Origin: Methanosarcina horonobensis HB-1 = JCM 15518 | GTDB taxonomy: Archaea > Halobacteriota > Methanosarcinia > Methanosarcinales > Methanosarcinaceae | Direction of reading: 5' to 3' | Assembly (NCBI RefSeq): GCF_000970285.1 | Contig: NZ_CP009516.1 | Coordinates: 4,257,036 to 4,321,035 of the forward strand | DNA: 64,000 nucleotides | Shown: piece after piece, positions 23,596-41,914 of the stretch | How positions within the stretch are numbered: the first letter of the stretch is position 1 | Layout of the letters: every line of letters starts with the position of its first letter | Made by a program: the position numbers and the translations under genes | The notes under the pieces: generated by a model | What the model was told of the DNA's origin: nothing | The model's input: the letters and a program-made list of their open reading frames with translations, nothing else | The model's database searches: none

Positions 23596-24614
23596 ATGGA
23601 AATTGCTTTCAGAGATATTAAACGTTTTTGATTTACGATCTACCAAGCAAATCTTGCACAATACAGGATGCTACCTCTTGAAAAATCGGTACCTGCCTTG
23701 AAAATCGTCATCTTGAGCATGTATTTTTGCCTTGAAATTTCCTATGTAGTCAGAGAATTGAACAAAAAGAGAAAATTAAGGAAATTTATGAGAATCAAGT
23801 CAGTACCTTCTGAAGATGAAGTTTATAGCATCATGAGTAGCTTTGATCTAGATCAGTTTATCAACTTTGCTATTGGAGTGCTTAACAACATTTGTTCTCG
23901 TCGTAAAAGAGGTACAAGCCAAACAATAACTGATAGTACAGACATTAATCTCGATTTAACTGATTTAAGAGGAAAATTAGCCAAAAGATGCTAAAAGATC
24001 GAGATTTTAAATGGGGTCACTCTAAGCATAGAGGTTATTTCATAGGGATGAAACTAAGTCTTGTCCTAGAATATCCAAGCTTAAAACCGTTAGCTTTCGT
24101 CATTAATGAAGCAAACGTTAGTGAATACACAGTTTATCCACAGATTCTTGAAGAAGTAAGTAGAAGGAAGAAAATAAGAGCAGGAGACGTACTTTATTTC
24201 GATAGAGGTTATTACTCATATGAAAATTATGTGATAGAAATAGCAAAATACAAAATAGTTTCTGTTATTTTTCTAAAGATTAATTGTAATTTTAACAAAT
24301 TTTCAATATGCTAAGCTATCCTCTGAATATATTTGATTCAAGAAGAAATACAAAAGAAGAAAAGGAGCTTTACAAGAAACTGGTTGTAAAATTGAAATCA
24401 TTGATCGAAAATTGGGGAGGACTTTAGACCTATTAGGTCTCTAATAGAAGATGTGTTTAAAGTAACTAAGAAAGCATGCAATATGGAGAACTTACATAGA
24501 TATGCGATGCGTTCTGTAAAAAAATATTGCTCTTTGGCGGTATTTTTGACAGAGGTAGTTATAGCTTTCTTTGTTAGCGATAAAAAGGGATTGCAAAACT
24601 TTGCTGAGAGTTAA
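23596..24614 (+). pseudogene. Degenerate DDE transposase (IS4/IS5 superfamily)
   Basis: The frame opens MEIAFRDIKRF, meets a stop, continues as FTIYQANLAQYRM and then through DSTDINLDLTDLRGKL, shifts frame at about 23990 to KDRDFKWGHSKHRGYF and VLYFDRGYYSYENY, shifts again near 24300 and ends with RSLIEDVFKVTKKA and KKGLQNFAES. DST, DRGYY and the late Glu are the expected DDE triad region. At least three lesions make it inactive. The exact IS family is not assigned. Confidence 0.85.
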
Positions 24615-24704: not shown

Positions 24705-25722
24705 TTAATTTGTGGATAGAGTGTTTCCATCCATTTCTTTGCAAACGATAATGATGCTGATATTCTGTAAAACTCGTTTCTGATTATATTTTTCATCTGT
24801 TCTTTTGATTGAATAAACGACAGATAATTCTCTCTTTATCGTTTTCCATACAAATTCAACCGGATTTAAGTCTGGTGAATAAGGAGGAAGGAACACAAGT
24901 GTTTTTTAGTTCTCTTGCTTTCTTTATCGTTTTATCAGCATGACGTGATTTTGAATTATCCAGAACCAGAATTATTCTTTTCTTTTGATTGTGTTCCACA
25001 ATTTTTTCCAGAAACTCACAAACGTTTTCTGCTTTTGAAAGCTCCATAAAATCTATGAAATTATTACCGTTGATAGAATAAAATGCGAATGCATTTGCTT
25101 TTATGTAATCTGTGTTTTTTATCATCAAAGGTTTTTTAAATAACCACAATCGTTGCGTATTTGCCTTTTTCTGTGGTGAAGATTCATCTAGAAAACCGAT
25201 AATATATTGCTTGTTTGGATCAATATATTTTGGAACTGCTTCGGCTAACTTTTTTAAAATTTCTTCTGCGTTTTCAGGTCTTCTGTAGTCAAAAGTATAT
25301 GGCTTTGAGTGATACATGTTAAAACTATGCAGTATAACTCCTATTTGTTTTTGTGAGTACTCTATACCATATTTTTCCTTTATTAGCTCCATAACTTCTC
25401 TTGTAGTCCAGTAAACTTTATTTTCCAACAAAGCTCTTAACTCTTTTATTTGCTCATCTGTAAGTTTTGACTTTCTTCCTCCTCCAAAATTTGGTGTTAA
25501 GGCGGTATAGTCGCCTTTATTCCATTTTTCTTGCCAGTAATATCCTGTTTTCTTAGTTACTCCAACTTTAGTAGTAGCTTCTTCTACAGAATCTCCCGAA
25601 AGCCTGAACTTGATGAAATAGAGACTTTTTAGCACTCTTGAATTGTTCTCATGTTTTATTAGAGAGTTTATCTCATCAAGAGTTACCTTTTGATCAGTAG
25701 GAATTTGTTTCTTCCCTACCAT
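24705..25722 (-). mobile_element. IS630-family transposase, frameshifted
   Basis: The N-terminal 288 residues carry a helix-turn-helix (VEEATTKVGVTKKTGYYWQ), a second winged part, and the first two catalytic Asp (GFLDESSPQ, LVLDNSKSRH). The C-terminal motif FLPPYSPDLNPVEFVWKTIK, holding the last Glu, lies in another frame from 24896 down. The switch is needed just after CTAAAAAAC (about 24905-24912 on the - strand) and must be +1, or a one-base indel in the A run. The C-terminus ends oddly with NTLSTN. Terminal repeats were not identified. Confidence 0.85.
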
Positions 25723-25810: not shown

Positions 25811-27589
25811 TTATTTGAGTTTTAGAAGTTTATATGCACCTTCATTGTAGACGAGATAATTATCTTTAATCTTTTCATTTAAATTTATGAATTCTGTATC
25901 ATTCAGTGTTTTCAAAAATGAAGTAGCTGAATGCCAATTTTCAGGGTAATCTACAAATTGCCTCTCTTCATATAGGGACTTCCTCATAAAAATAAAGGTA
26001 TTCGATGTATAATTATCACTTTCTTTTTCGAATAGTATTTTGTCATTAAGTTCAATTGAGTGTGCGTTTCTTGACCTAGATAATGAAAAAACTCTTGCTC
26101 CTGCTAACTGCATTTCCAGTGCCAACGTAGAGTTATCCGGTAAATTTCTATCTATTCGATCAAGTGTGTTTATCTCGTGCGTACTTCTGATATTGTACAT
26201 TTCACTTCGTAGCTCGGATGGATAAGGCTCGGGTGTGAACGCCATATACTCTGTTGCAATCCACTGGCTTATCGGATATATAAAAAGAAGGACAATTACC
26301 ATTAAAGCAATAATTTTATTCATTTTTTGTTTATCTGGCTCAACTTTTGATTTCATTCGAACACTAATATATCCTACAGGAATGCATCCCAGAATAATCC
26401 CAAACCTCATGATTCTTGTAGGAGACAGCGAATTAGCAAGAGAAGGGACAACGGAGCTCAGGGCTATGAGGCATACATCAAAGAATGCCACAACCGCAAA
26501 AATACGCTGGTATCCCGATAAATTACGTATCTGAGCAAGCAGATAGAAACTCCCAATAGCTATATAAAAAGCCTGCAACTTATATAGTGTCTGCACAAAA
26601 GAGAAATCGGAAAGAATTTTCGTAGTTTCACTGCTCGACGAGATTTCCATTTCCTTTGATTTAAATAAATCGGTAATGCCTCTTAACATGTGATCCGCAA
26701 TACGGATATCCCCCTGGTGATGATAAGTTAGATCGAATATCCACAAAAAAAGGACCGCGGAAAAAAACAGAACATAAAAATTTCTGTATTTTTTTGAGTC
26801 CTTATTTTTCGTCTTCGAAAAATGTAAAATAAATCCGGTTAAAAATAGTAACGACAGTGTCAGCAGATTAAAATAGGAGGTTGTATAGTGTGAAAATATC
26901 AAGGCTGTACAAATTATAATGTAGACAAGCACTCCTGAAGGACGATTCCTTTTTGCTTGGATCTGCATGATATAAATGGATGTAACTAAAAATAATGTTC
27001 CATAATTTTCTCTTGTCATTGAGAGACTGTAGATCGAAACTGCGGGATTATACATGTATGCAATGCATGAGATTACTGCAATGTCCCTGTCAAATATATT
27101 CTTTATTAACAGATAGAGAAATATGACTGTCAATGCATGGGAAAATAGGTGGGTAAAATTCCAAGACTCGGCTATTGGATTTACATTTGTTATTGTTGAT
27201 ATCATATAAACAGATATATATGAAAGTGGGAACTCTGTAAGAGCATTTGAAGTAAGTTCAAAAGTCGGTTGAAGAAACAAAGATTTAATTACGCCAAATT
27301 CCGCAACAGAGTCGCATCCCAGATATAAACCATATTTAATGTGAAGGCCCAGGACTTTGATTATTGCGACTAAAAACAGCAATGATGCTATGATAAGATT
27401 TTCATTTTTATTTTGTGAAGTAGGGCTGAAAATAAATAGCGATGGCGAAAGTCCCAAAAGTAGTGACGAGATTATAAATGTCAATTGAGAGTATGTACTT
27501 GTGGTACTATGAGATGAAATTAAAATACCTGCAGTCCCTACAAGAAAACATATTAAAGCTGTGCAATATAATATTTTTTCGGGTTTCAT
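25811..27589 (-). CDS. Multi-pass membrane protein, DUF2206 type
   Basis: 592 residues. About eleven to twelve helices fill residues 1-445, with an acidic charged loop after helix 2-3 (YLGCDSVAEFG, like the DE/DD motif of PMT/ArnT-type GT-C enzymes). A soluble domain of about 145 residues follows. DUF2206 proteins are common in Methanosarcina surface-glycan loci and are probable GT-C-like sugar transferases using lipid-linked donors. The upstream spacer has the dispersed repeat. It is the last gene of the - strand arm. Confidence 0.75.
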   Translation of the reverse strand: MKPEKILYCTALICFLVGTAGILISSHSTTSTYSQLTFIISSLLLGLSPSLFIFSPTSQNKNENLIIASLLFLVAIIKVLGLHIKYGLYLGCDSVAEFGVIKSLFLQPTFELTSNALTEFPLSYISVYMISTITNVNPIAESWNFTHLFSHALTVIFLYLLIKNIFDRDIAVISCIAYMYNPAVSIYSLSMTRENYGTLFLVTSIYIMQIQAKRNRPSGVLVYIIICTALIFSHYTTSYFNLLTLSLLFLTGFILHFSKTKNKDSKKYRNFYVLFFSAVLFLWIFDLTYHHQGDIRIADHMLRGITDLFKSKEMEISSSSETTKILSDFSFVQTLYKLQAFYIAIGSFYLLAQIRNLSGYQRIFAVVAFFDVCLIALSSVVPSLANSLSPTRIMRFGIILGCIPVGYISVRMKSKVEPDKQKMNKIIALMVIVLLFIYPISQWIATEYMAFTPEPYPSELRSEMYNIRSTHEINTLDRIDRNLPDNSTLALEMQLAGARVFSLSRSRNAHSIELNDKILFEKESDNYTSNTFIFMRKSLYEERQFVDYPENWHSATSFLKTLNDTEFINLNEKIKDNYLVYNEGAYKLLKLK

Positions 27590-28019: not shown

Positions 28020-28937
28020 TTATATCTGTGCCCCAAAGCGTCCAATAAAAGCATCCTCAATCCCTTTAAATATCATACTGCATGCTCTAATGTCTCTTCT
28101 AAAAATCAACAAATACAATGTACGAATCCCAAAAACAGCCATGATAACAATAAATGCAGTTAGCAGTTGTGGCATATGAAAGTGCTTTCTTAAGAATAAT
28201 AACTTGTTCCGCGTATTGTAATATAGGGAAAAGGGAGATAACGCACCACCACTTGTTCTGGATACTTTATGATATATTTTTGCAGATGGTACATACCGTA
28301 TACCACACCCATTCTTTTTTGCCATCAAGCATATATCGACATCTTCAAAATAAGCAAAATATCTCTCATCCAGTAAGCCGATTTTTTGAAATAAACCGGC
28401 TTTTATTAACATAGCACAACCTGATACAAAATCGACATCTTTCTCACGGCTATATTTTTCTGTATCCCGTTTATCCATCCCATGGTATGCAACGAGACAT
28501 ATCCAGTAATTAATGAAGCCACCAGCAGCCCATATTTGGTCAGTAGCATCATAATAATTGATCTTAGTTCCAAGGATTCCAATATTTTCATTTTTCTTTG
28601 CCACGGATATCAATTCATCAAGAAAGTCAGGTTCAACTGCCACATCGTTGTTCAGGAGGAGAATGTAGTCAGCACCATCGGATATTGCTTTTTTTATTCC
28701 TATATTGCACCCTCCGGTAAATCCCAAGTTCTTTTCATTCTCAACAATTTTAATTCCTGGATAGTGTTCTCTGAATAATTCTGCTGAACCATCAGTCGAG
28801 CCATTGTCTACCAGCAATATCTCATAGTTTGGGTAGGTTACCTGCTTCAATGATTCAAGGCATTCTATTGTATCTTTCTTGCCGTTCCAGTTAAGAGTAA
28901 TGATGGTTACTTTGGGTATGGACATAAGATTCCTCAA
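28020..28937 (-). CDS. GT2 glycosyltransferase, rhamnosyltransferase-like
   Basis: 305 residues. GT2 domain with TIITLNWNGKKDTIECLESL, VDNGSTDGS, NLGFTGGCNIG, LLLNNDVAVEP (metal-binding acid) and FFAYFEDVDICLMAKK near 205, which is typical of WbbL-type rhamnosyl and related transferases. One C-terminal amphipathic/membrane segment near 255-280. Its start overlaps the end of the methyltransferase gene by four bases. With rmlA, rmlB and rmlD in the same arm, dTDP-rhamnose is a reasonable donor. Confidence 0.85.
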   Translation of the reverse strand: MRNLMSIPKVTIITLNWNGKKDTIECLESLKQVTYPNYEILLVDNGSTDGSAELFREHYPGIKIVENEKNLGFTGGCNIGIKKAISDGADYILLLNNDVAVEPDFLDELISVAKKNENIGILGTKINYYDATDQIWAAGGFINYWICLVAYHGMDKRDTEKYSREKDVDFVSGCAMLIKAGLFQKIGLLDERYFAYFEDVDICLMAKKNGCGIRYVPSAKIYHKVSRTSGGALSPFSLYYNTRNKLLFLRKHFHMPQLLTAFIVIMAVFGIRTLYLLIFRRDIRACSMIFKGIEDAFIGRFGAQI

Positions 28938-30748
28938 TCTCTTGAAAATGAATAGAATATTTTTAACCAGACCCTATTTAACGTGTTTCTCGATATAGAT
29001 TGAAGATTATTTGGCAACATATACCAAACTTTTATAATTAGTTGCTTCGCAAAATTATGATGAACTAATGAAAGGATATCAAGAGAAGTTACCTTAGATC
29101 TATTTGCTCCATTTGAAGTGAGGTTTTGAAATTCATCTTCCGTTTTCTTGTTTTTATTGTGCCTGGACTTTCCATATTGTGGGAATAAATTTTTAAGTAA
29201 CTCCATTGTGAATTTATCTCTATTTTTAATTCTTATACTTGCTATGTTGGATATGTCAAGAATACATCTATAAACAACAAAATCAGCAGGAATATTTCCT
29301 TCAACGCACCATTCTATATCTATTGGAAGTAATTTATTTTCCTTGTTTCTTATCATGTTTTTTAATATTATGTCAATAGAACAACCATCTAAGAGTGGAT
29401 ACCCTTCTGCATCCTTATCACCATGGTGATATCTATTGATTAATTCTTGATAATATTCTCTCATAACTTTTAAAATCTCACTTTTAAATTCCTTTATATG
29501 TTGTGCTTTATATATATCAAAAACTAACGAATCACCATCATACCATGGAGAATCGTAAACTTGATGTGTAACTTGTAAATGTATGTCGCCGACTTTCAAA
29601 GTTCCAACTTTCTTTTTATCAATTTCCCCGTTCAATCTTTTTTTGCTGATATATTTTTCAGGATTTTGTTTCAATATTGTTACACATTGGTACTGATAAC
29701 TACGATTTAAACTAAACTTTTTAGCAACCCAATCTGGTTTGTTACATATGTATGATTTGTTTCCAGCGATAATTAAGAATGAATTTGAGAATTCCCTTAA
29801 TAAACCAGCTTCCGAAAGTGTTTTTAATGCAAGCCCCTCATGAAAAGTATTTTTCCTTTGAGTATTATATGCTGAAAACGGGATACTGATCCAGTTATGT
29901 AAATATTGTTTTCTATCATCTCCAACATTACTGAAAATATCAGTGGCAAATTTATAGTCCGGGAACTGATAGTAAAAATCTATGTCTTTAAATCCGACTT
30001 TACTCAAGAGGTCGTTTATTTCCGCTTTAGAAAATGTTTTAGGAGTGTTTTCTATAGGATATCCGTGAATGCTATCATAAATTTTTTCAGTATGATCCTC
30101 CTGGCAACCGCTCCAATATTTGATTCCTATTTTGTTTTCAATTGCGATAATTAGGATTCCATCTGGTTTAAGAGCAGATTTAGCTAATTTGAGAAAAGAA
30201 ATAAAAGGATCTTCTTTATTATCACATAAAGCATAGACTGGAGAGTATTCTAACACTCCTATCAGAGTGACCATGTCATAATTCTGTTCAAATTTTATTT
30301 TGTTAATATCCGAGCAAAAGACTTTTACATTATTTAAATCTCTACATCTTTCTCGAGTAATTTCTGCACGTAAAAGACTGCCCTCCACACAATCAACAGA
30401 TTTAAAATTTTCTCCTAAATATCTCGTTATAGCTCCACACCCGGAGCCAAGTTCTAAGACTTTAATTTGAGATTTCAAATCTAAACATTTTAGCACATTT
30501 GACCTGCCAATTCCTAAGTGGTAATAAGATGGCCAATCTTTTGCTAGTCGCATAAGTTCTTCAGAACCGTCACTTAGGTCATTGGTTCTTTTTATAGCTG
30601 ATAATATATATTTTTCAACATTTCCATCCGAATAATTGTATTCTTGTTCAAAATTCCTGACTTCTTCAGGCAATCTAAAAAGCTGTAATTTTTCGTCATA
30701 TTGAAATTCAGATAAAGAAATTTTAATATTTTCATCTTTACATTTCAT
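28934..30748 (-). CDS. SAM methyltransferase with C-terminal kinase-like domain
   Basis: 604 residues. The N-terminal part (about 95-260) is a class I methyltransferase with VLELGSGCGAITRYLG and VDCVEGSL. The C-terminal half is unlike methyltransferases and shows an HGD..DGCSIDIILKNM segment (about 441-465) followed by LLPIDIEWCVEG (about 472-483). That spacing resembles the catalytic loop DxxxxN and metal-binding DxE of kinase-fold phosphotransferases. Bacterial WbdD combines the same two activities to cap O-antigen chains; a similar chain-terminating role is inferred. It lies between a GT2 and a flippase gene in one operon. Confidence 0.75.
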   Translation of the reverse strand: MKCKDENIKISLSEFQYDEKLQLFRLPEEVRNFEQEYNYSDGNVEKYILSAIKRTNDLSDGSEELMRLAKDWPSYYHLGIGRSNVLKCLDLKSQIKVLELGSGCGAITRYLGENFKSVDCVEGSLLRAEITRERCRDLNNVKVFCSDINKIKFEQNYDMVTLIGVLEYSPVYALCDNKEDPFISFLKLAKSALKPDGILIIAIENKIGIKYWSGCQEDHTEKIYDSIHGYPIENTPKTFSKAEINDLLSKVGFKDIDFYYQFPDYKFATDIFSNVGDDRKQYLHNWISIPFSAYNTQRKNTFHEGLALKTLSEAGLLREFSNSFLIIAGNKSYICNKPDWVAKKFSLNRSYQYQCVTILKQNPEKYISKKRLNGEIDKKKVGTLKVGDIHLQVTHQVYDSPWYDGDSLVFDIYKAQHIKEFKSEILKVMREYYQELINRYHHGDKDAEGYPLLDGCSIDIILKNMIRNKENKLLPIDIEWCVEGNIPADFVVYRCILDISNIASIRIKNRDKFTMELLKNLFPQYGKSRHNKNKKTEDEFQNLTSNGANRSKVTSLDILSLVHHNFAKQLIIKVWYMLPNNLQSISRNTLNRVWLKIFYSFSRD

Positions 30749-30763
30749 AATACCTTGTCTCCT

Positions 30764-32209
30764 TTAATTAGCACTAACATATAAACTTCTAAATAATCTC
30801 AAATCTTCTTTATCAAATGCACATAATACATATAATGTAATTATGTATGATGTCATAGACACAAAAATTGTTAATATGAAGTTTACATTATGCATGAAAA
30901 TGACAAGTATGCCCATAATTAAACTTGAAGCCACTGATTTAAACAAAATATTAAGTAAAATTTTATTTTGTAGATGATATCCAATTTTTGAAAGAACAAT
31001 GAATTCCATATATATGACAATCAATCTAGTGAAGTCAGTAGCGAGGCTTGCGCCTACATAACTGTATTCAGGGATAAATATTAGATTTAGTACAATGTTT
31101 AAAATGGCTCCTATTCCTACTATTTTTGTAAGTGTTCCCTGTTTATTGATAGAATTCAATAAGTATCCAAAAATCCCACCAATGGACGCAAAAAGAAATG
31201 ACCAAACTAAAATTTTAAGGATAATTATAGATTGAGAATACTCAATACCGAAAGTTAACAAAATAATTCTATCCGATAATAAGATCGTCCCTGTTACAAT
31301 TGGTATACATAAAATCAATATATATTTTAAGGATTTTTCTAAAACAAATTTCAAGGTATTTTCCGATGTTTTGTGTAATTTTGACATTATCGGAAACATT
31401 GCTGTTGTGTACATACTCGGAATGATTAATAAAATAAGTACCATCCTATAAGCTGCATTATACCAGCCCACTACCTCATCACCGTTTGAAATCATTATCG
31501 AGAGCATTACGGAATCTATGTAGTAGTATATTACAATAAATATACTTGAAATGCCAAATGGAAGTGATTCTTTCAAGGTTTTTTTAATAAAAGTGGAATC
31601 AATTTCTATGTGAAGTCTAACAAATTTTCTTAAACAAATTCCAAAATTCGTCATGAATACAATAATACTTACTAAAAGATATATCATCGAAAAATGTATG
31701 ACATCAAATCTTTGACTTATAGCAAGCAGTATTCCAGAATACATTAAAGTGCTGTTTAAGCCTTGGCCTAATGACTGATATTCCATTTTTTCGTATGCTT
31801 GGAAAATAGAATAAAAAGTGTTAGAAAACGAATTAAAAATTACAGACAAAAAAATAATATACACAATGAACTCTGTCTGTTTTGAACATCCAATTAAGTT
31901 TAGTGATGGTATAATAAAAATGAATGTAATAATTGATAGTATAATTTTCATTAAAAGAATATTTGAAAGGTATTTCTCAGATAATAACTCATTTTTAGAC
32001 ACTTCTTTTGTAGTTAATGTTGTCATTCCTATGTCAGTAAAAACACCAAATATAGCTGTAGTAGCTAATGCAAAACTCAAAATCCCAAAGCTTTCAGCTC
32101 CAAGATATCGAGCCATATACATTGTATAAAAAAAACCAAGCCCTAAGCAAATTATCTGTGCGCCAAATAAAGAAAACATATTTTTTGCAATTCTTTGAAC
32201 AGTATCCAA
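30764..32209 (-). CDS. Polysaccharide flippase (Wzx/PST family)
   Basis: 481 residues with about fourteen helices, the usual size for MOP-superfamily exporters. The start AKNMFSLFGAQIICLGLGFFYTMYMARYLGAESFGILSFA is typical of RfbX/Wzx, which moves lipid-linked glycan across the membrane. It lies 13 bases from the rmlA gene upstream and 15 from the methyltransferase downstream, so co-transcription is likely. Confidence 0.9.
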   Translation of the reverse strand: MDTVQRIAKNMFSLFGAQIICLGLGFFYTMYMARYLGAESFGILSFALATTAIFGVFTDIGMTTLTTKEVSKNELLSEKYLSNILLMKIILSIITFIFIIPSLNLIGCSKQTEFIVYIIFLSVIFNSFSNTFYSIFQAYEKMEYQSLGQGLNSTLMYSGILLAISQRFDVIHFSMIYLLVSIIVFMTNFGICLRKFVRLHIEIDSTFIKKTLKESLPFGISSIFIVIYYYIDSVMLSIMISNGDEVVGWYNAAYRMVLILLIIPSMYTTAMFPIMSKLHKTSENTLKFVLEKSLKYILILCIPIVTGTILLSDRIILLTFGIEYSQSIIILKILVWSFLFASIGGIFGYLLNSINKQGTLTKIVGIGAILNIVLNLIFIPEYSYVGASLATDFTRLIVIYMEFIVLSKIGYHLQNKILLNILFKSVASSLIMGILVIFMHNVNFILTIFVSMTSYIITLYVLCAFDKEDLRLFRSLYVSAN

Positions 32210-32942: not shown

Positions 32943-33748
32943 ATATTTCTCTCCTGCAAATAGGCTTTAAGTGCTTCTCTCCAGTGTCTCATAGGTTCAG
33001 TTTTAGTATTCACAAGGACAGAATATTTTGGTCTTTTTGCTTTTCTCGGGAATTCTTCACTGGTACAGGGAGTCACATTATCGATAATAGAAAAAGCAAA
33101 CTCATACCATGAACAGATTCCATCGTTTGTAATATGATAAATTCTTGGGTTAAGGTCAATTATTTCTCTTATTTTGCAGGCAAGGTCCATTGTATAGGTT
33201 GGTTTGCCGAACTGGTCATTGACCACTTTTACAGTATCCATTTCTCCGGATGATCTCAGCATAGTTTCAACGAAATTTTCCCCATGAATTCCAAAAAGCC
33301 AGGAAATTCTTACAATCCTGTAATCATTGATGTTCTCAATAATTTTCTTTTCACCGAGAAGTTTTGAGTCTCCGTATACATTAATCGGACTTGGGACATC
33401 AGATTCCATATGTTCTTTTTTAGAACCGTCAAAAACGTAGTCAGTGCTGAAATGGACAAGTTTAGCTCCAACAATAGAACAGGCTTCTGCAATGTATCCA
33501 GGTCCAGATCCGTTGACCTGAAAAGCAAGTTCCTGATTATCTTCACAACCGTCCACATTTGTGTAGGCAGCTGCGTTTATGACAATGTCAGGTTTTGTTT
33601 TTAAAACCGATTCAATAACCTGCTCTCTGTCTGTGATGTCGAGGTTTTTATGTGCTAATTTGATAGCGTCAGGAAAAACTTTGCAAAGATCTGATCCAAG
33701 CATTCCGCTGGCACCGATGATCAGTGTTTTAATGGCTCCCACCACCAT
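32939..33748 (-). CDS. rmlD: dTDP-4-dehydrorhamnose reductase
   Basis: Up to 269 residues, a short-chain reductase: GASGMLG near the start, STDYVFDGSK with Ser/Thr, and YGDSKLLGE supplying catalytic Tyr and Lys. It gives dTDP-rhamnose in the last step. The start is unclear. ATG 33748 lies 28 bases inside rmlB with its nearest ribosome site too far away; two GTG codons follow; and the expected family N-terminus KTLIIGASG is preceded by ATT (33733) with GGTGGGAG just upstream. Confidence 0.88.
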   Translation of the reverse strand: MVVGAIKTLIIGASGMLGSDLCKVFPDAIKLAHKNLDITDREQVIESVLKTKPDIVINAAAYTNVDGCEDNQELAFQVNGSGPGYIAEACSIVGAKLVHFSTDYVFDGSKKEHMESDVPSPINVYGDSKLLGEKKIIENINDYRIVRISWLFGIHGENFVETMLRSSGEMDTVKVVNDQFGKPTYTMDLACKIREIIDLNPRIYHITNDGICSWYEFAFSIIDNVTPCTSEEFPRKAKRPKYSVLVNTKTEPMRHWREALKAYLQERNI

Positions 33749-34677
33749 CTGTTTTCAACATACCACCTGACTGTTTGCTCAAGGGCAGTATCAAAATCAT
33801 ATTTTGGTGTCCAGCCCATTTTTTCCAGTTTGCTGCCGTCAAGGGAGTACCGGAAGTCGTGACCTTTTCTGTCTTCAACATATTCAATTGAAGCTTCGTT
33901 TTTACCAAGCATTTTTAGAAGGCGGTATGTGATTTCAAGGTTTGTAAGCTCGTTTCCACCGTCTATATTGTAGATTTCACCGCTGCTTCCGTTGTGGAGA
34001 ACAAAGTCTACTGCAGAGCAGTGGTCTTCAACATATATCCAGTCCCGGATATTCAGGCCTGCACCGTACACTGGAACTTTCTTTCCTTCCATTAATCTGC
34101 TGATGAAAAAAGGAATCAACTTTTCAGGATACTGGTAAGGACCGAAGTTGTTTGTACATCTGGTTATGCAAACAGGCAGTCCATAGGTTGTATGGTAGGA
34201 CATTGCAAGAAGATCCGAACCGGCCTTGCTTGAAGAGTAAGGACTTGAAGGGTTCAGGTTATCTTTTTCTGTAAAAGAACCTTCCGCAGTACTGCCGTAT
34301 ACCTCATCAGTTGAAATATGGATAAACTTTTTGATGTTATTTGCAAGGGCACTCTGGAGAAGAATGTTTGTACCTAGCACATTTGTCCTTACGAAAACTG
34401 AGCCATCTTCAATTGAACGGTCAACGTGACTTTCGGCTGCAAAATGGACAACCTGATCTACTTTTTTCATTACTTCATTCACGATAACAGGGTCACAGAT
34501 ATCGCCCTTAACAAAAGCATAATTCTGGTTATCTTCTAGGTCTTTGAGGTTAGCAGGGTTTCCGGCGTAGGTCAGTTTGTCAAGGTTTACAATATGATAA
34601 TCTGGATATTTTTCCAGCATATAGCGGATGAAACTGCTGCCTATGAATCCACAGCCGCCTGTAACCAATAGTTTCAA
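33721..34677 (-). CDS. rmlB: dTDP-glucose 4,6-dehydratase
   Basis: 318 residues from a TTG at 34677, chosen because GGTGACTAAG sits just before it and the product begins KLLVTGGCGFIGS as in other RmlB. A GTG at 34704 would add nine residues. NAD-binding GGCGFIG, catalytic Thr-Asp-Glu in ISTDEVYGS and YSSSK are all present. It converts dTDP-glucose to the 4-keto-6-deoxy form. The epimerase RmlC is not in this window, so the final product may differ from L-rhamnose unless rmlC lies elsewhere. Confidence 0.92.
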   Translation of the reverse strand: MKLLVTGGCGFIGSSFIRYMLEKYPDYHIVNLDKLTYAGNPANLKDLEDNQNYAFVKGDICDPVIVNEVMKKVDQVVHFAAESHVDRSIEDGSVFVRTNVLGTNILLQSALANNIKKFIHISTDEVYGSTAEGSFTEKDNLNPSSPYSSSKAGSDLLAMSYHTTYGLPVCITRCTNNFGPYQYPEKLIPFFISRLMEGKKVPVYGAGLNIRDWIYVEDHCSAVDFVLHNGSSGEIYNIDGGNELTNLEITYRLLKMLGKNEASIEYVEDRKGHDFRYSLDGSKLEKMGWTPKYDFDTALEQTVRWYVENRWWWEPLKH

Positions 34678-34696
34678 CTTAGTCACCTTTGTGTTT

Positions 34697-35788
34697 TTAG
34701 TCACCTTTATGTTTTCGATTTAGTTTTTGAGTAGATGATAAAGCAAAAAGATACGAAATATTTTTTAATTGGAGCGCTCTCTTTTCGACAAGATTCCATG
34801 AAAGGAATGCAAAGAGAAAAGTTATTGGATAGGAAAAAACAAATAATTTTAATGATGTGATATTATTTTGGAACAAATGGACAAGTGTTTGTTGTATTGG
34901 GAATGCATATATGTATAATCCGTAGGAAAAGTCCCCTCTTTCTGTAAGCGTTTTCAGATATTTTGTGGGTATAAATGCAAGATGGAAAACGATATACGGT
35001 ATAGAAATATATGAGACAATTTCGAAAAATTCTGTACCAAATGAAATTATCCACAATATCAATGCAAAAATAAATATATCTTTTCTATATTGGATTTTAT
35101 CTCCATATAAATAGTAGCATGCTCCGATTAAGTAATATGTCACATTGTTCACATTGAATATTATATACATGCATCTGATTTCGTTTTCGTTAAAATGATG
35201 GATTCCGATGTTATATAATATAATTTCTGCTAAAATAAATATGAGCAAGAACCATTTTTTCTTAAATATTCCTAATAAGCCAATAACAGCTGTCACTATG
35301 TACATTGTTGTTTCTCCAATTAATGTCCATAGTGATCCGTTTACTGAATTTGGATATATATTTTGACTAAAAACTCCGGGTAAATATTTCTGGCGTAATG
35401 TAGCCATATATATTAGTACGTTTGGGATATCTATATTCTTGAAATATTCTAATGGATCTAAAGATGAAACAAGAGGCCCGATAACGAAAGTTGAAAATAA
35501 AATCGAAACTATCAATCCTGGATAAATCCTTAAAATTCTTTTCCAAAAATATGAAAATATATTCGGGTTTTTATTCCAACTTTTGGTTATTAGGTATCCG
35601 CTGATCATAAAAAATATGCATACACTTAATCTCCCAAATGTCATGCTCTGCGTCAATAAATAAAATGGTTCTTTCTCGTGATTTCCTAATGAAAGAACAT
35701 ATGAATGTGAAAATATTACTAATGATGCAGCAATAAGTCTTAATAAATCAAAATTATTTTGATTCCTATTTATATAGTCAATTTTCAT
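34697..35788 (-). CDS. Acyltransferase family 3 (OafA-like) membrane protein
   Basis: 363 residues from ATG 35788, preceded by AGAGAGATT; a further in-frame start at 35809 would add seven. About ten helices. The family start FDLLRLIAASLVIFSHS with Arg and His, and CIFFMISGYLITKSW, mark the acyltransferase-3 (OafA/WecH) group that O-acetylates surface glycans. First gene of the - strand arm; its stop overlaps the rmlB leader (GGTGACTAA serves as both stop and ribosome site). Confidence 0.88.
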   Translation of the reverse strand: MKIDYINRNQNNFDLLRLIAASLVIFSHSYVLSLGNHEKEPFYLLTQSMTFGRLSVCIFFMISGYLITKSWNKNPNIFSYFWKRILRIYPGLIVSILFSTFVIGPLVSSLDPLEYFKNIDIPNVLIYMATLRQKYLPGVFSQNIYPNSVNGSLWTLIGETTMYIVTAVIGLLGIFKKKWFLLIFILAEIILYNIGIHHFNENEIRCMYIIFNVNNVTYYLIGACYYLYGDKIQYRKDIFIFALILWIISFGTEFFEIVSYISIPYIVFHLAFIPTKYLKTLTERGDFSYGLYIYAFPIQQTLVHLFQNNITSLKLFVFSYPITFLFAFLSWNLVEKRALQLKNISYLFALSSTQKLNRKHKGD

Positions 35789-35809
35789 AATTAATCTCTC
35801 TTGTGCCAC

Positions 35810-36946: not shown

Positions 36947-39900
36947 ATGAAATGTGATAAAATATGTAAAAGACAGATTTACAAAAAAATTTTATTGATA
37001 ACGGCACTTGAATTTTTAATACTGGTGAGTATCGCAGGCGCATCGCCATTTGCATATATTACAAATGGGGATAGCAATAGTGTCTCTGTAATCGACACAG
37101 ACACAAACAAAGTCACAGCTACGATACCTGTAGGATCCAATCCTATGGGAGTTGCAATTAATCCGAATGGAACAAAGGTATACGTGGTAAATGCCAATAG
37201 CAATGACATATCTATAATTGACACTTCTACAAACAAAGTTACAGCCACGGTGCCTGTAGGATCCAATCCTATGGGAATTACGATTAACCCGGATGGGACA
37301 AAGGTATATGTAGCGGTCCGCCTCAAAAACACTGTCTCTGTGATTGACACGGCAACAAATACTGTTACAGCTACAGTGGATACAGGAAAATCTCCTAAGG
37401 GCGTCGCAGTTAGTCCTGATGGAAAAAAAGTATATGTGACAAACGAAGACGACAAAACTGTCTCTATAATTGACACGGCAACAAATACTGTTACAGCCAC
37501 GGTGCCTGTAGGATCTAATCCTGTGGGAATTGCGGTCACACCGGACGGAAGTAAGGTATACGTAGTGAACTATGGTAGCGGAAGCGTCTCTGTAATTGAC
37601 ACTGCTACAAACAGTGTTATAGAGATAGTGAAGGTAGGGCGAGCGCCTTTTGGAATTACGGTAAATCCAGATGGAACAAAGGCATATGTGACGAATAACG
37701 ATGAATATGTTAGCACTGTCTCTGTGATTGACACCGCAACCAACACCGTTACAGCCACGGTGCCCGTAGGATCCAATCCTATGGGAATTGCAGTCAGCCC
37801 GGATGGGACAAAGGTATATGTAGCTATCCACCTCTACAACACTGTCTCTGTAATTGACACCGCAACCAACACCGTTACAGCCACAATGCTTACAGGAAAT
37901 GGCCCTTATGCTTTAGGTCAGTTTATAGGTTCCATTCCGGAACAACCAGTTTATCCTTTAGCGAATTTCAGCAACAATATCACGTCAGATTACGTTCTCC
38001 GTTCTGTGCCTGTGCAGTTTACAGATTTGTCAAAGAATGCAACCGAGTGGAGATGGGATTTTGGAGATGGATCTAATTCAATAAAGCAGAACCCCATGCA
38101 TACCTATTATGCAGCGGGAATCTATACTGTCAGGCTGACAGTAAGCAATTCAAACGGCACAGATTCAAAGCTTGCTACAGTGAATGTTGTACCAATAGGT
38201 TCTCCTGCACCCTCATATGCATATATTACAAACTTCAACAGCAACACTGTTTCTGTAATTGACACCGTTATAAACGAGGTTACAGCCACGGTGTCTGTAG
38301 GAAACAAACCTTTGGGAGTTGCAGTCAGCCCGGATGGAACAAGGGTATATGTGACGAATGTCAACCACGGCAGCATTGATACTATCTCTGTAATTGACAC
38401 CGCTATAAACAAGGTTACAGCCACGGTGCCTGTAGGATACAAATACAGTCCTTGCGGAGTTGCAGTCACACCGGATGGAACAAAACTATATGTGACGAAT
38501 CGCGACATCAACTGTGTCTCTGTAATTGACCCCGCTATAAACAAGGTTATAGCCACGGTGCCCGTAGGATCTAATCCACTGGGCGTTGCAGTCACACCGG
38601 ATGGAACAAAACTATATGTGACGAACCGTCATAGCAACGATATTTCTGTAATTGACACTGCAACCAACGCTGTTATAGCGACTGTGAAAGTTGGATCCGG
38701 CCCTTGTGGAGTTACAGTAAACCAGGAAGGAACAAAACTATATGTGACGAATTGCGAAAATAGCGCTATTTCTGTAATAGACACGAGTTCAAACACTGTT
38801 ACAGCCACAATCCCTGTAGAAGAATGGCCTATGGGAGTTGCAGTCAGCCCGGATGGAACAAAAGTATATGTGGCGAATGAAGGCAGTAGCAAGGTCTCCG
38901 TGATTGATACAGCCACAAATACTGTTACAGCGACTGTGAATGTCGGAAAAAGTCCTTACGGAATTGCAGTCACGCCGGATGGAACAAATGTATACGTGGC
39001 AAACTATGGCAGCGAAAGCGTCTCTATAATTGACACAGCAACAAATAAGATTACAGCCACTGTACGTGCAGGGTCCAATCCTATCGCTTTCGGCCAGTTT
39101 ATAAGTCCTCTCCCGGCACAACCAGTACTTCCTGCTGCAAACTTCAGCAGCAACCTCAGATCCGGTTATGCTCCTCTTTCTGTCCAGTTTATAGATCTCT
39201 CGAAGAATGTAGATGAGTGGAACTGGAACTTTGGAGACGGATCCAATTCAACACAGCAGAATCCGGAATATACTTACCCCGTAGCAGGGAATTACAAAGT
39301 AAGGCTTAAGGTAAGCAATACAAACGGTACCGATTCGAAATTTGCCACAGTAACTGTTCTGGCACAGCCAATATTTTCTGCAGCCCGAACTTCAGGAAAA
39401 GCACCGCTTAGTGTTAGTTTTGCTGACCAGAGCACAGGATCTCCAACGTTATGGAACTGGACTTTTGGAGATGGGGCTTATTCAACGGAAAAGAATCCTG
39501 TTCATATATATAGAAAATCAGGAAAATATTCTGTTACTTTGACATTAAACGAAACTGGGAACAAGAGTACAGTAACAAAATCAGGTTATATTACTGTTTC
39601 AAACGGTTTTGAAGCCCCTGTTGCTGCTTTCTCTGCATCTCCAGTTTCAGGAAACGCGCCTCTTACCGTTAGTTTCACTGACCAGAGCACAGGATCTCCA
39701 ACCTCAAGGAAATGGACTTTTGGAGATGGTACCTATTCAACCGGGAAGAACCCTGTACACACATACAGCAAAGCAGGATTGTACTCTGTTACGCTAACAG
39801 TGAGTAATGCAGATGGCAGTAATACGTTAACAAAATCCAGCCACATTACTGCCTTAAATGTTGTAGATAGTCCTGTCGTCAGCTTTTCTGCATCTCCCAC

Positions 39901-41914
39901 TTCAGGAAAGGCCCCTCTTACTGTTAATTTTACAAGCCAGGTCAAAGGATCTCCAACTGAATGGAAATGGGCTTTCGGAGATGGAAACATTTCAACCGAT
40001 AAAAATCCTGTACACATATACAATAAATCAGGCCTATATTCTGTCACATTGACAGCAAGTAATGCAAAAGGCAGTAATACGTTGACTAAAACCGGCTATA
40101 TTGCTGTCTCAAGTGTTTTGAACACTCCTGTTACCAATTTCTCTGCATTCCCTACTTCAGGAAGCATGCCTCTTACCGTTCAGTTTACTGACCAGAGCAC
40201 AGGATCTCCAACTTCACGGAAATGGACTTTTGGAGACGGAAACACTTCAACAGAAAAGAATCCTCTATACACGTATAATAAATCAGGCCTATACTCTGTC
40301 ACATTGACATCAAGCAATGCAAAAAGCAGTAATGTGTTGACTAAAACCATTGCTGTCTCAAGTGTTTTAGCTGCTCCTGTTACCAATTTCTCTGCATCCC
40401 CTACTTCAGGAAGCATGCCTCTTACCATTCAGTTTACTGACCAGAGCACAGGGTCGCCAACTTCATGGAAATGGACTTTCGGAGACGGGAATACTTCAAC
40501 AGATGAAAATCCTGTACACATATACAATAAAACAGGACTTTATTCTGTTGCTTTGACAACAACTAATGAGGGAGGCAGTAATGCTGTGCAAAAATCCAGT
40601 TATATAAATGTAACTTCTGAAAGCGATAATGTGACGTCGAATCCAGGCTCTATTGTCCCTGTCACCGACTTTTTTGCAACTCCGACTTCAGGAAACACGC
40701 CTCTTACCGTTCAGTTTACTGACCAGAGTACAGGGTCTCCAGCTTCATGGAAATGGACTTTTGGAGATAGAAACACATCGACAGAAAAGAATCCTGTGCA
40801 CACATACAATAAATCAGGCCTATATTCTGTCACATTGACCACAAGCAATGAAAACGGCAGTAACACGCTGACAAAATCCGGCTACATTGCTGTCTCAAGT
40901 GTTTTAAACACTCCTGTTACCAATTACTTTGCATCCTCTACTTCAGGAAGCATGCCTCTTACTGTTGTTTTCACTGACCAGAGCATGGGGTCTCCAACTT
41001 CATGGAAATGGACTTTCGGAGACGGAAACACTTCAACAGAAAAGAATCCTGTACATACCTACAATAAATCAGGCCTATACTCTATTACATTGACAGCAGA
41101 TAATGCAAACGGCAGTGACACGCTGACAAAATCCGGCTACATTGCTGTCTCAAGTGTTTTAAACACTCCTATTACCAATTTTTCTGCATCCTCAACTTCA
41201 GGAAAAGCACCTTTGAAAGTTCAGTTTACTGACCAGAGTACAGGGTCGCCAACTTCATGGAAATGGACTTTCGGAGACGGGAATACTTCAACAGATGGAA
41301 ATCCTGTACACATATACAATAAAACAGGACTTTATTCTGTTACATTGACAACCAGTAATGCAAACGGCAGCAACACGTTAACAAAATCCAGCTATATTGC
41401 TGTCTCAAGTTTTTTGAACACTCCTGTTACCAATTTCTCTGCATCCCCTACTTCAGGAAGCATGCCTCTTACCGTTCAGTTTACTGACCAGAGTACAGGG
41501 TCGCCAACTTCATGGAAATGGACTTTCGGAGACGGGAATACTTCAACAGATGAAAATCCTGTACACATATACAATAAAACAGGACTTTATTCTGTTACAT
41601 TGACAGCAAGCAATGCAAAAGGCAGTAACACGTTAACAAAATCCAGCTATATTGCTGTTTCAGACCCCCTTGTCGCTGCTTTTTCTGCATCTCCAACTTC
41701 AGGATCTGCACCGCTTAGTGTCAGTTTTACTGACCAGAGCACAGGGTTGCCAACTTCATGGAAATGGACTTTTGGAGATGGAAATTCTTCAACAGAAAAG
41801 AATCCTGTACACGTATACAATAAGATAGGACAATATACTGTTAGTTTAACGGTAAATAATTCGGGAAGCATTAGTACTGAAAGCAGATCTAAATATATCG
41901 CAGTTAGTAAGTAA
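36947..41914 (+). CDS. Giant secreted YVTN beta-propeller / PKD surface protein
   Basis: 1655 residues. Signal peptide 1-33. First seven-bladed YVTN propeller (about 35-320, seven VSVIDT-type blades), one PKD domain (about 335-415), a second seven-bladed propeller (about 422-715), then eleven PKD domains to the C-terminus, each with (W/R)KWTFGDG and HxYNKSGLYSVTLT. The protein ends in YIAVSK with no membrane helix or PGF-type anchor. Such proteins form or decorate the Methanosarcina envelope and mediate cell contact. The PKD units are nearly identical in DNA, indicating recent expansion. It sits at the end of the glycan locus. Confidence 0.92.
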   Translation: MKCDKICKRQIYKKILLITALEFLILVSIAGASPFAYITNGDSNSVSVIDTDTNKVTATIPVGSNPMGVAINPNGTKVYVVNANSNDISIIDTSTNKVTATVPVGSNPMGITINPDGTKVYVAVRLKNTVSVIDTATNTVTATVDTGKSPKGVAVSPDGKKVYVTNEDDKTVSIIDTATNTVTATVPVGSNPVGIAVTPDGSKVYVVNYGSGSVSVIDTATNSVIEIVKVGRAPFGITVNPDGTKAYVTNNDEYVSTVSVIDTATNTVTATVPVGSNPMGIAVSPDGTKVYVAIHLYNTVSVIDTATNTVTATMLTGNGPYALGQFIGSIPEQPVYPLANFSNNITSDYVLRSVPVQFTDLSKNATEWRWDFGDGSNSIKQNPMHTYYAAGIYTVRLTVSNSNGTDSKLATVNVVPIGSPAPSYAYITNFNSNTVSVIDTVINEVTATVSVGNKPLGVAVSPDGTRVYVTNVNHGSIDTISVIDTAINKVTATVPVGYKYSPCGVAVTPDGTKLYVTNRDINCVSVIDPAINKVIATVPVGSNPLGVAVTPDGTKLYVTNRHSNDISVIDTATNAVIATVKVGSGPCGVTVNQEGTKLYVTNCENSAISVIDTSSNTVTATIPVEEWPMGVAVSPDGTKVYVANEGSSKVSVIDTATNTVTATVNVGKSPYGIAVTPDGTNVYVANYGSESVSIIDTATNKITATVRAGSNPIAFGQFISPLPAQPVLPAANFSSNLRSGYAPLSVQFIDLSKNVDEWNWNFGDGSNSTQQNPEYTYPVAGNYKVRLKVSNTNGTDSKFATVTVLAQPIFSAARTSGKAPLSVSFADQSTGSPTLWNWTFGDGAYSTEKNPVHIYRKSGKYSVTLTLNETGNKSTVTKSGYITVSNGFEAPVAAFSASPVSGNAPLTVSFTDQSTGSPTSRKWTFGDGTYSTGKNPVHTYSKAGLYSVTLTVSNADGSNTLTKSSHITALNVVDSPVVSFSASPTSGKAPLTVNFTSQVKGSPTEWKWAFGDGNISTDKNPVHIYNKSGLYSVTLTASNAKGSNTLTKTGYIAVSSVLNTPVTNFSAFPTSGSMPLTVQFTDQSTGSPTSRKWTFGDGNTSTEKNPLYTYNKSGLYSVTLTSSNAKSSNVLTKTIAVSSVLAAPVTNFSASPTSGSMPLTIQFTDQSTGSPTSWKWTFGDGNTSTDENPVHIYNKTGLYSVALTTTNEGGSNAVQKSSYINVTSESDNVTSNPGSIVPVTDFFATPTSGNTPLTVQFTDQSTGSPASWKWTFGDRNTSTEKNPVHTYNKSGLYSVTLTTSNENGSNTLTKSGYIAVSSVLNTPVTNYFASSTSGSMPLTVVFTDQSMGSPTSWKWTFGDGNTSTEKNPVHTYNKSGLYSITLTADNANGSDTLTKSGYIAVSSVLNTPITNFSASSTSGKAPLKVQFTDQSTGSPTSWKWTFGDGNTSTDGNPVHIYNKTGLYSVTLTTSNANGSNTLTKSSYIAVSSFLNTPVTNFSASPTSGSMPLTVQFTDQSTGSPTSWKWTFGDGNTSTDENPVHIYNKTGLYSVTLTASNAKGSNTLTKSSYIAVSDPLVAAFSASPTSGSAPLSVSFTDQSTGLPTSWKWTFGDGNSSTEKNPVHVYNKIGQYTVSLTVNNSGSISTESRSKYIAVSK
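39880..41660 (+). repeat. Tandem DNA repeats encoding PKD domains
   Basis: Units of roughly 250-270 bases recur with near identity, for example TTTACTGACCAGAGyACAGG and ATGGAAATGGACTTTyGGAG at 40190, 40435, 40715, 40975, 41225 and 41480. The units at 40380-40600 and 41430-41640 are almost the same sequence. Unit number is likely to vary between strains. Confidence 0.85.

What the first reader, a model, noticed from the sequence alone, without database searches (positions are those of the whole stretch)
28934..30748. Methyltransferase joined to a kinase-like domain: a candidate archaeal chain terminator
The N-terminal SAM domain and the C-terminal DxxxxN...DIEW signature mirror the two activities of bacterial WbdD, which caps O-antigen with methyl phosphate and sets chain length. 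Gene position beside a flippase and GT2 fits. If true, it would be a length-control system for an archaeal surface polysaccharide.
Basis: inference. Interest (0 to 1): 0.65.

Follow-up and report, generated by a model that had tools for sequence, protein, structure and literature searches.

The report
Flippase-paired archaeal glycan-capping enzyme
This methanogen gene encodes a two-part enzyme that probably adds a phosphate and then a methyl group to the end of a rhamnose-containing surface sugar chain; it belongs to a recently characterised bacterial enzyme family, but it is paired with a flippase and lacks the 'ruler' that relatives use to set chain length.

Summary
A 604-aa gene at 28934-30748 (-) has a SAM methyltransferase domain followed by a 222-residue domain unknown to Pfam. 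That domain is modelled confidently (pLDDT 92.8). Its listed structural matches are all kinase-fold, though weak (best E 0.008). D459, N464 and D477 are invariant in 66 relatives.

WbdD is the right functional analogy but the wrong family. The match is the methyltransferase-kinase of Klebsiella pneumoniae O7 (ORF6-N; Kelly 2024, PMC11231755), shown there to make a methylphosphate cap on rhamnose. All seven O7 residues named in that paper have identical counterparts here, at family-typical spacing. I could not align the O7 sequence itself.

Length control is not supported for this copy. Relatives beside Wzm/Wzt usually carry long, often coiled-coil tails. This copy and its Wzx-paired relatives, in two separate clades, end within 60 residues and show no coiled-coil signal. 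The Wzx-enzyme pair recurs in Atribacteria (Wzx 56%, enzyme 54% identity) and another methanogen lineage.

Best reading: a horizontally acquired, ruler-less cap-adding enzyme that modifies a rhamnose-containing lipid-linked glycan before flipping. Archaeal versions that do have the ruler and ABC transporter exist (L112, L031, L029), and the 2024 paper already reports a Methanoculleus homologue.

The parts
28934..30748 (-). Methyltransferase-kinase fusion, 604 aa, O7 ORF6-N type
   Evidence: SD-like aaaggag upstream
29984..30499 (-). SAM methyltransferase domain as matched by Pfam, residues 84-255; the SAM-contact positions named for O7 map to Y39, Y76, G101, G103, E122, Y168
29093..29758 (-). 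Kinase-like domain, residues 331-552; D459/N464/D477 invariant in 66 relatives; unknown to Pfam
   Evidence: occurs as a separate ORF in six Bacillota loci
28937..29092 (-). Short C-terminal tail, residues 553-604, helical, low model confidence, no coiled-coil signal
30764..32209 (-). Wzx-type flippase that travels with the enzyme
   Evidence: 55.7% identical to the Atribacteria flippase in the same position, 44% to the Methanosarcinales one
28020..28937 (-). GT2 glycosyltransferase, overlaps the enzyme's stop codon
32223..32942 (-). RmlA-like nucleotidyltransferase
   Evidence: 68-69% identical to RmlA in L112 and L031
32939..33748 (-). RmlD-like dTDP-4-dehydrorhamnose reductase
   Evidence: PF04321 E 2.7e-86
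33721..34704 (-). RmlB-like dTDP-glucose 4,6-dehydratase
34697..35809 (-). Acyltransferase family 3, first gene of the apparent operon
25811..27589 (-). Membrane protein, PMT_2 / DUF2206-like, possibly a GT-C enzyme of the same locus
   Evidence: PF13231 E 5.3e-08; link to the operon uncertain

Best explanation
A bifunctional glycan-capping enzyme of the K. pneumoniae O7 ORF6-N kind. On the cytoplasmic face of the membrane its C-terminal kinase phosphorylates a hydroxyl of the non-reducing terminal sugar, probably a rhamnose, of a lipid-linked glycan. Its N-terminal domain then methylates that phosphate. The capped glycan is flipped by the partner Wzx and attached to a surface acceptor. Without a coiled-coil ruler or an adjacent Wzm/Wzt exporter, the cap most likely marks a completed oligosaccharide and does not measure chain length. 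Shown here: domain make-up, kinase-like fold, invariant catalytic residues, match to the published O7 residue pattern, the conserved pairing with Wzx, the missing ruler. Inferred: catalytic activity, rhamnose as acceptor, order of steps, acceptor and final role.
For: Confident model (pLDDT 90.4); kinase domain alone pLDDT 92.8 with kinase-fold PDB matches. D459, N464, D477 invariant. All seven residues named for O7 (Y28, Y66, G91, G93, E112, Y158, D441; text) are identical in the window protein, as in 58 of 69 members. O7's first five spacings equal the commonest family values, and all six equal those of L065 and L075 exactly. Of 83 family loci, 41 lie within two ORFs of Wzm/Wzt, the setting of characterised terminators. 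Rml A, C or D homologues are found in 31 of 83. The window operon has RmlB, RmlD and RmlA, and RmlC is elsewhere in the genome. The Wzx-enzyme pair recurs in Atribacteria and Methanosarcinales with matching identities (56/54% and 44/45%). The six Wzx-adjacent members have tails of 37-59 residues and no coiled-coil signal; 32 of 33 Wzm/Wzt-adjacent ones have 68 or more.
Against: The O7 protein sequence (MN173773.1) was not available, so kinship to it rests on residue identity and spacing. The kinase fold match is weak (best E 0.008, TM about 0.3). A single-sequence comparison with a WaaP-type kinase aligned the same motif but was not significant (probability 3.7%). The coiled-coil score is a home-made heuristic that overlaps its globular control. 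In the Wzx versus Wzm/Wzt comparison relatives are counted as if independent, and the Wzx label needs three changes on the tree. The acceptor sugar in this archaeon is unknown.
Confidence: 0.62

Rival explanations
1. It is a true chain terminator that sets length, as in WbdD and O7, through competition between capping and extension, without needing a coiled coil.
For: Same catalytic module as the characterised terminator; GT2 gene immediately downstream.
Against: The published rulers are coiled coils and the published systems are ABC-exported. Here the tail is short with no coiled-coil signal, and the flippase is Wzx.
Confidence: 0.17
2. It decorates an internal or side-branch sugar of a repeat unit before flipping, so the mark occurs once per repeat and does not end the chain.
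For: Wzx flippases in general export short units (own knowledge); the Atribacteria operon with the same pair includes a Wzy_C protein, so capped units may be polymerised there.
Against: No Wzy_C match anywhere in this genome, although that search also gave nothing in the archaeal control genomes; the characterised relative modifies a terminal rhamnose.
Confidence: 0.17
3. Only the methyltransferase is active; the kinase-like domain is a pseudokinase or a binding module.
For: Structural similarity to kinases is weak and no kinase family is recognised by sequence.
Against: Catalytic Asp, Asn and the second Asp are invariant in 66 diverse relatives, and the equivalent D441 of O7 was shown to be essential.
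Confidence: 0.04

Closest known systems
K. pneumoniae O7 ORF6 N-terminal methyltransferase-kinase (PMC11231755)
   Same: Domain order, Pfam-invisible kinase domain, SAM-contact residues and catalytic Asp at family-typical spacing, dTDP-rhamnose setting
   Different: No coiled coil, no fused GT2 modules, Wzx flippase instead of Wzm/Wzt; the extra CBM of O7 was not seen here
E. coli O9a WbdD (PMC3482155)
   Same: Methyltransferase followed by kinase; expected product a methylphosphate cap
   Different: Kinase domain not detectably related by sequence; WbdD has a coiled coil and acts in an ABC-exported polymannose pathway
Archaeal O7-like clusters L112, L031, L029
   Same: Same enzyme family; L112 and L031 also share rmlB, rmlD and rmlA in the same order, 63-72% identical
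   Different: Wzm-Wzt in place of Wzx and a coiled-coil-like tail on the enzyme; L029 is also fused to two GT2 modules

Membership tests
K. pneumoniae O7 ORF6-N type methyltransferase-kinase | SAM-binding residues Y28, Y66, G91, G93, E112, Y158 | tested here: met
   Y39, Y76, G101, G103, E122, Y168; spacings 37, 25, 2, 19, 46 against 38, 25, 2, 19, 46
K. pneumoniae O7 ORF6-N type methyltransferase-kinase | Catalytic Asp D441 in an unannotated kinase-like domain | tested here: met
   D459 invariant; no Pfam match to a kinase family in 66 members; kinase-fold PDB matches
K. pneumoniae O7 ORF6-N type methyltransferase-kinase | Direct sequence alignment with O7 ORF6 | not testable with these tools
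   the sequence (MN173773.1) was not among the records I could reach
K. pneumoniae O7 ORF6-N type methyltransferase-kinase | Coiled coil after the kinase domain (molecular ruler) | tested here: not met
   59-residue tail, heuristic score 0.57 against 1.09 for the 95th percentile of the globular control
K. pneumoniae O7 ORF6-N type methyltransferase-kinase | Adjacent Wzm/Wzt exporter | tested here: not met
   Wzx-type flippase adjacent; the one Wzt_C match in the genome is about 475 kb away
K. pneumoniae O7 ORF6-N type methyltransferase-kinase | Methylphosphate transfer to rhamnose O-3 | not testable with these tools
   needs biochemistry
WbdD (E. coli O9a) | Kinase domain related to WbdD by sequence | tested here: not met
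   Profile of 66 kinase domains against PDB chains: six hits at E up to 10, none WbdD
WbdD (E. coli O9a) | Kinase fold C-terminal to the methyltransferase | tested here: met
   (remote similarity)
WbdD (E. coli O9a) | Phosphate-binding H132, H133, R203 in the methyltransferase | not tested
   WbdD sequence not obtained
WbdD (E. coli O9a) | C-terminal coiled coil linked to chain-length control | tested here: not met

The most novel reading that the evidence does not exclude
A previously undescribed branch of O7-type methyltransferase-kinases works with Wzx flippases instead of ABC exporters. It has lost the ruler, and the partner flippase recognises or requires the methylphosphate cap, so the cap acts as an export or completion signal for archaeal and bacterial surface oligosaccharides.
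Probability: 0.3. Interest if true: 0.65.

Novelty: new variant of a known kind. Interest (0 to 1): 0.45.

Why it matters
Chain-terminating caps are known from ABC-exported glycans, where cap, ruler and exporter form one system. A recurring pair of the same capping enzyme with a Wzx flippase, without the ruler, separates capping from length control and raises the testable question of whether Wzx can read a cap. The archaeal operons offer a natural comparison: closely similar rhamnose genes joined either to Wzm-Wzt plus a ruler-bearing enzyme, or to Wzx plus a ruler-less one. It also gives a likely function to a domain that Pfam does not recognise, found at roughly 400 loci in the genome scan.

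Tried and rejected
Sequence searches of the PDB with the window protein and with a 69-row profile returned methyltransferases in the rows shown. The kinase-domain profile gave chance matches to designed repeat proteins and one marginal choline-kinase match (E 0.054) at the catalytic loop. Fold search with the full model was swamped by methyltransferases, so the kinase domain was modelled alone. Viral contigs: no relatives. Three 'phage' records from human faeces match; the one I opened is unannotated, and I suspect bacterial DNA. E. coli genomes: none at DNA level with the Citrobacter gene as query. hhalign against a WaaP-type kinase: not significant.

Full report
Observation. The gene at 28934-30748 on the minus strand is an intact 604-codon frame with a Shine-Dalgarno-like aaaggag before its ATG. 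It sits in an apparent operon on the same strand: acyltransferase, RmlB, RmlD, RmlA, Wzx-type flippase, this gene, GT2. Pfam sees a methyltransferase in residues 84-255 and nothing after it. The D-xxxx-N ... D-I-E-W motif is at D459, N464 and D477-W480.

Family. Tblastn found relatives on a Citrobacter and a Pseudomonas plasmid, covering 80% and 73% of the query. In 66 aligned members D459, N464 and D477 never vary. None of the 66 C-terminal domains matches a kinase family in Pfam. In six Bacillota loci the methyltransferase and the kinase-like domain lie in separate, consecutive ORFs, which independently marks the domain boundary.

Fold. The full model has mean pLDDT 90.4 and pTM 0.89; residues 331-552 alone give 92.8 and 0.89. 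Foldseek against the PDB lists kinase-fold proteins for that domain (Eph receptors, RIO2, Src, a KEOPS component) with best E 0.008 and none under 0.001. The similarity is therefore consistent in kind but remote, as the O7 authors found for theirs (closest AmiN, 11% identity).

What it corresponds to. Kelly and colleagues (PMC11231755) showed that K. pneumoniae O7 ORF6 phosphorylates a terminal rhamnose at O-3 and methylates the phosphate, and that D441A kills the kinase. They state that its kinase is quite different from WbdD's. Their named residues Y28, Y66, G91, G93, E112, Y158 and D441 give spacings 38, 25, 2, 19, 46, 283. The family's commonest values for the first five are the same, and L065 and L075 match all six exactly with the same residues; the window has Y39, Y76, G101, G103, E122, Y168, D459 with spacings 37, 25, 2, 19, 46, 291. 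I take this as strong, though indirect, evidence that the window and O7 enzymes are one family, because the O7 sequence itself was not available. The kinase profile does not find WbdD in the PDB.

Genomic setting. Of 83 family loci, 41 lie within two same-strand ORFs of Wzm/Wzt, and Rml A, C or D homologues lie near 31. The window member instead follows a Wzx-type flippase. Atribacteria L023 has Wzx and the enzyme followed by rmlA, rmlC, rmlD and rmlB, with flippase 55.7% and enzyme 54% identical to the window's. Methanosarcinales L025 has the same pair at 44% and 45%. Accumulibacter L027 has an enzyme of the same clade beside a different flippase. A second, separate clade in Flavobacteriaceae also has Wzx nearby. 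In the tree the window falls in a seven-row clade with SH-aLRT 100, mostly bacterial (quick method, so supports are only approximate).

Ruler. Members beside Wzm/Wzt have 58-1069 residues after the kinase domain, 24 of 33 with a coiled-coil-like heptad signal; the six Wzx-adjacent ones have 37-59 residues and none. Fisher P for a tail under 60 is 2e-06, but relatives are not independent, so I rely more on its recurrence in two clades. The coiled-coil score is a simple heuristic, the cut-offs (60 residues, score 1.05) were chosen after seeing the values, and the score threshold overlaps the globular control.

Archaeal comparison. L112 has rmlC-rmlB-rmlD-rmlA-Wzm-Wzt-enzyme, the enzyme bearing heptad-like tandem repeats near its C terminus; its RmlB, RmlD and RmlA are 72%, 66% and 68% identical to the window's. 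L031 is similar. L029 reads methyltransferase, kinase, coiled-coil-like stretch, two GT2 modules, the O7 architecture in an archaeon. So an archaeal length-control system of this type probably exists, but the window gene is not the best example, and the 2024 paper already mentions Methanoculleus marisnigri.

Origin. The kinase domain occurs in 3 of 393 genomes of the phylum and 2 of 31 of the genus. Enzyme and flippase are 31% and 28% GC against 40% for the rml genes and for the first 20 kb of the window. The genome has a second rmlC-rmlB-rmlD-rmlA-wzx cassette, 78% identical in DNA over rmlBDA, with no copy of the enzyme. A horizontally acquired Wzx-enzyme pair joined to a native rml cassette is the simplest account (inference).

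Mechanism. Phosphorylation, then methylation, of a terminal rhamnose on a lipid-linked glycan, followed by flipping, is inferred from the O7 biochemistry and gene context. No Wzy_C match exists in this genome, which is compatible with en bloc transfer of an oligosaccharide, although archaeal polymerases could be missed.

Noticed in passing
L112:6189-10878, L031, L029: Archaeal Wzm-Wzt clusters with ruler-bearing members of this family; L029 has the methyltransferase-kinase-coiled coil-GT2-GT2 architecture of Klebsiella O7.
   Followed up: partly
L119:6353-10865 (own genome, about 922-927 kb): Second rmlC-rmlB-rmlD-rmlA-wzx cassette, 78% identical in DNA to the window's rmlBDA and lacking the methyltransferase-kinase.
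   Followed up: partly
L051, L053, L062, L065: Flavobacteriaceae clade of short family members with Wzx nearby, separate from the window's clade.
   Followed up: partly
L050, L060, L087, L089, L095, L097: Methyltransferase (about 303 aa) and kinase-like domain in separate consecutive ORFs next to Wzm-Wzt in Bacillota.
   Followed up: partly
L049:3578-5362: A second copy on the same Accumulibacter contig as L027 has lost several SAM-contact residues (L, Y, D, G, E, H) but keeps the kinase residues: possibly kinase-only.
   Followed up: no
L024:321-1163: A Kdo/WaaP-family sugar kinase gene lies directly upstream of the family member in a Phycisphaerae contig.
   Followed up: no
window 36947-41914: 1655-aa protein of repeated beta-propeller-like (VIDTATN) and PKD-like (WTFGDG) units, probably a surface protein.
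   Followed up: no
window 23668-24314 and 24856-25722: Transposase-like fragments and a DDE transposase next to the glycan locus, fitting horizontal transfer.
   Followed up: no
L114:6244-8235 (same-genus genome G010): The only other family member found in the genus; it carries a tandem coiled-coil-like tail but has no transporter or rml gene within about 6 kb.
   Followed up: partly
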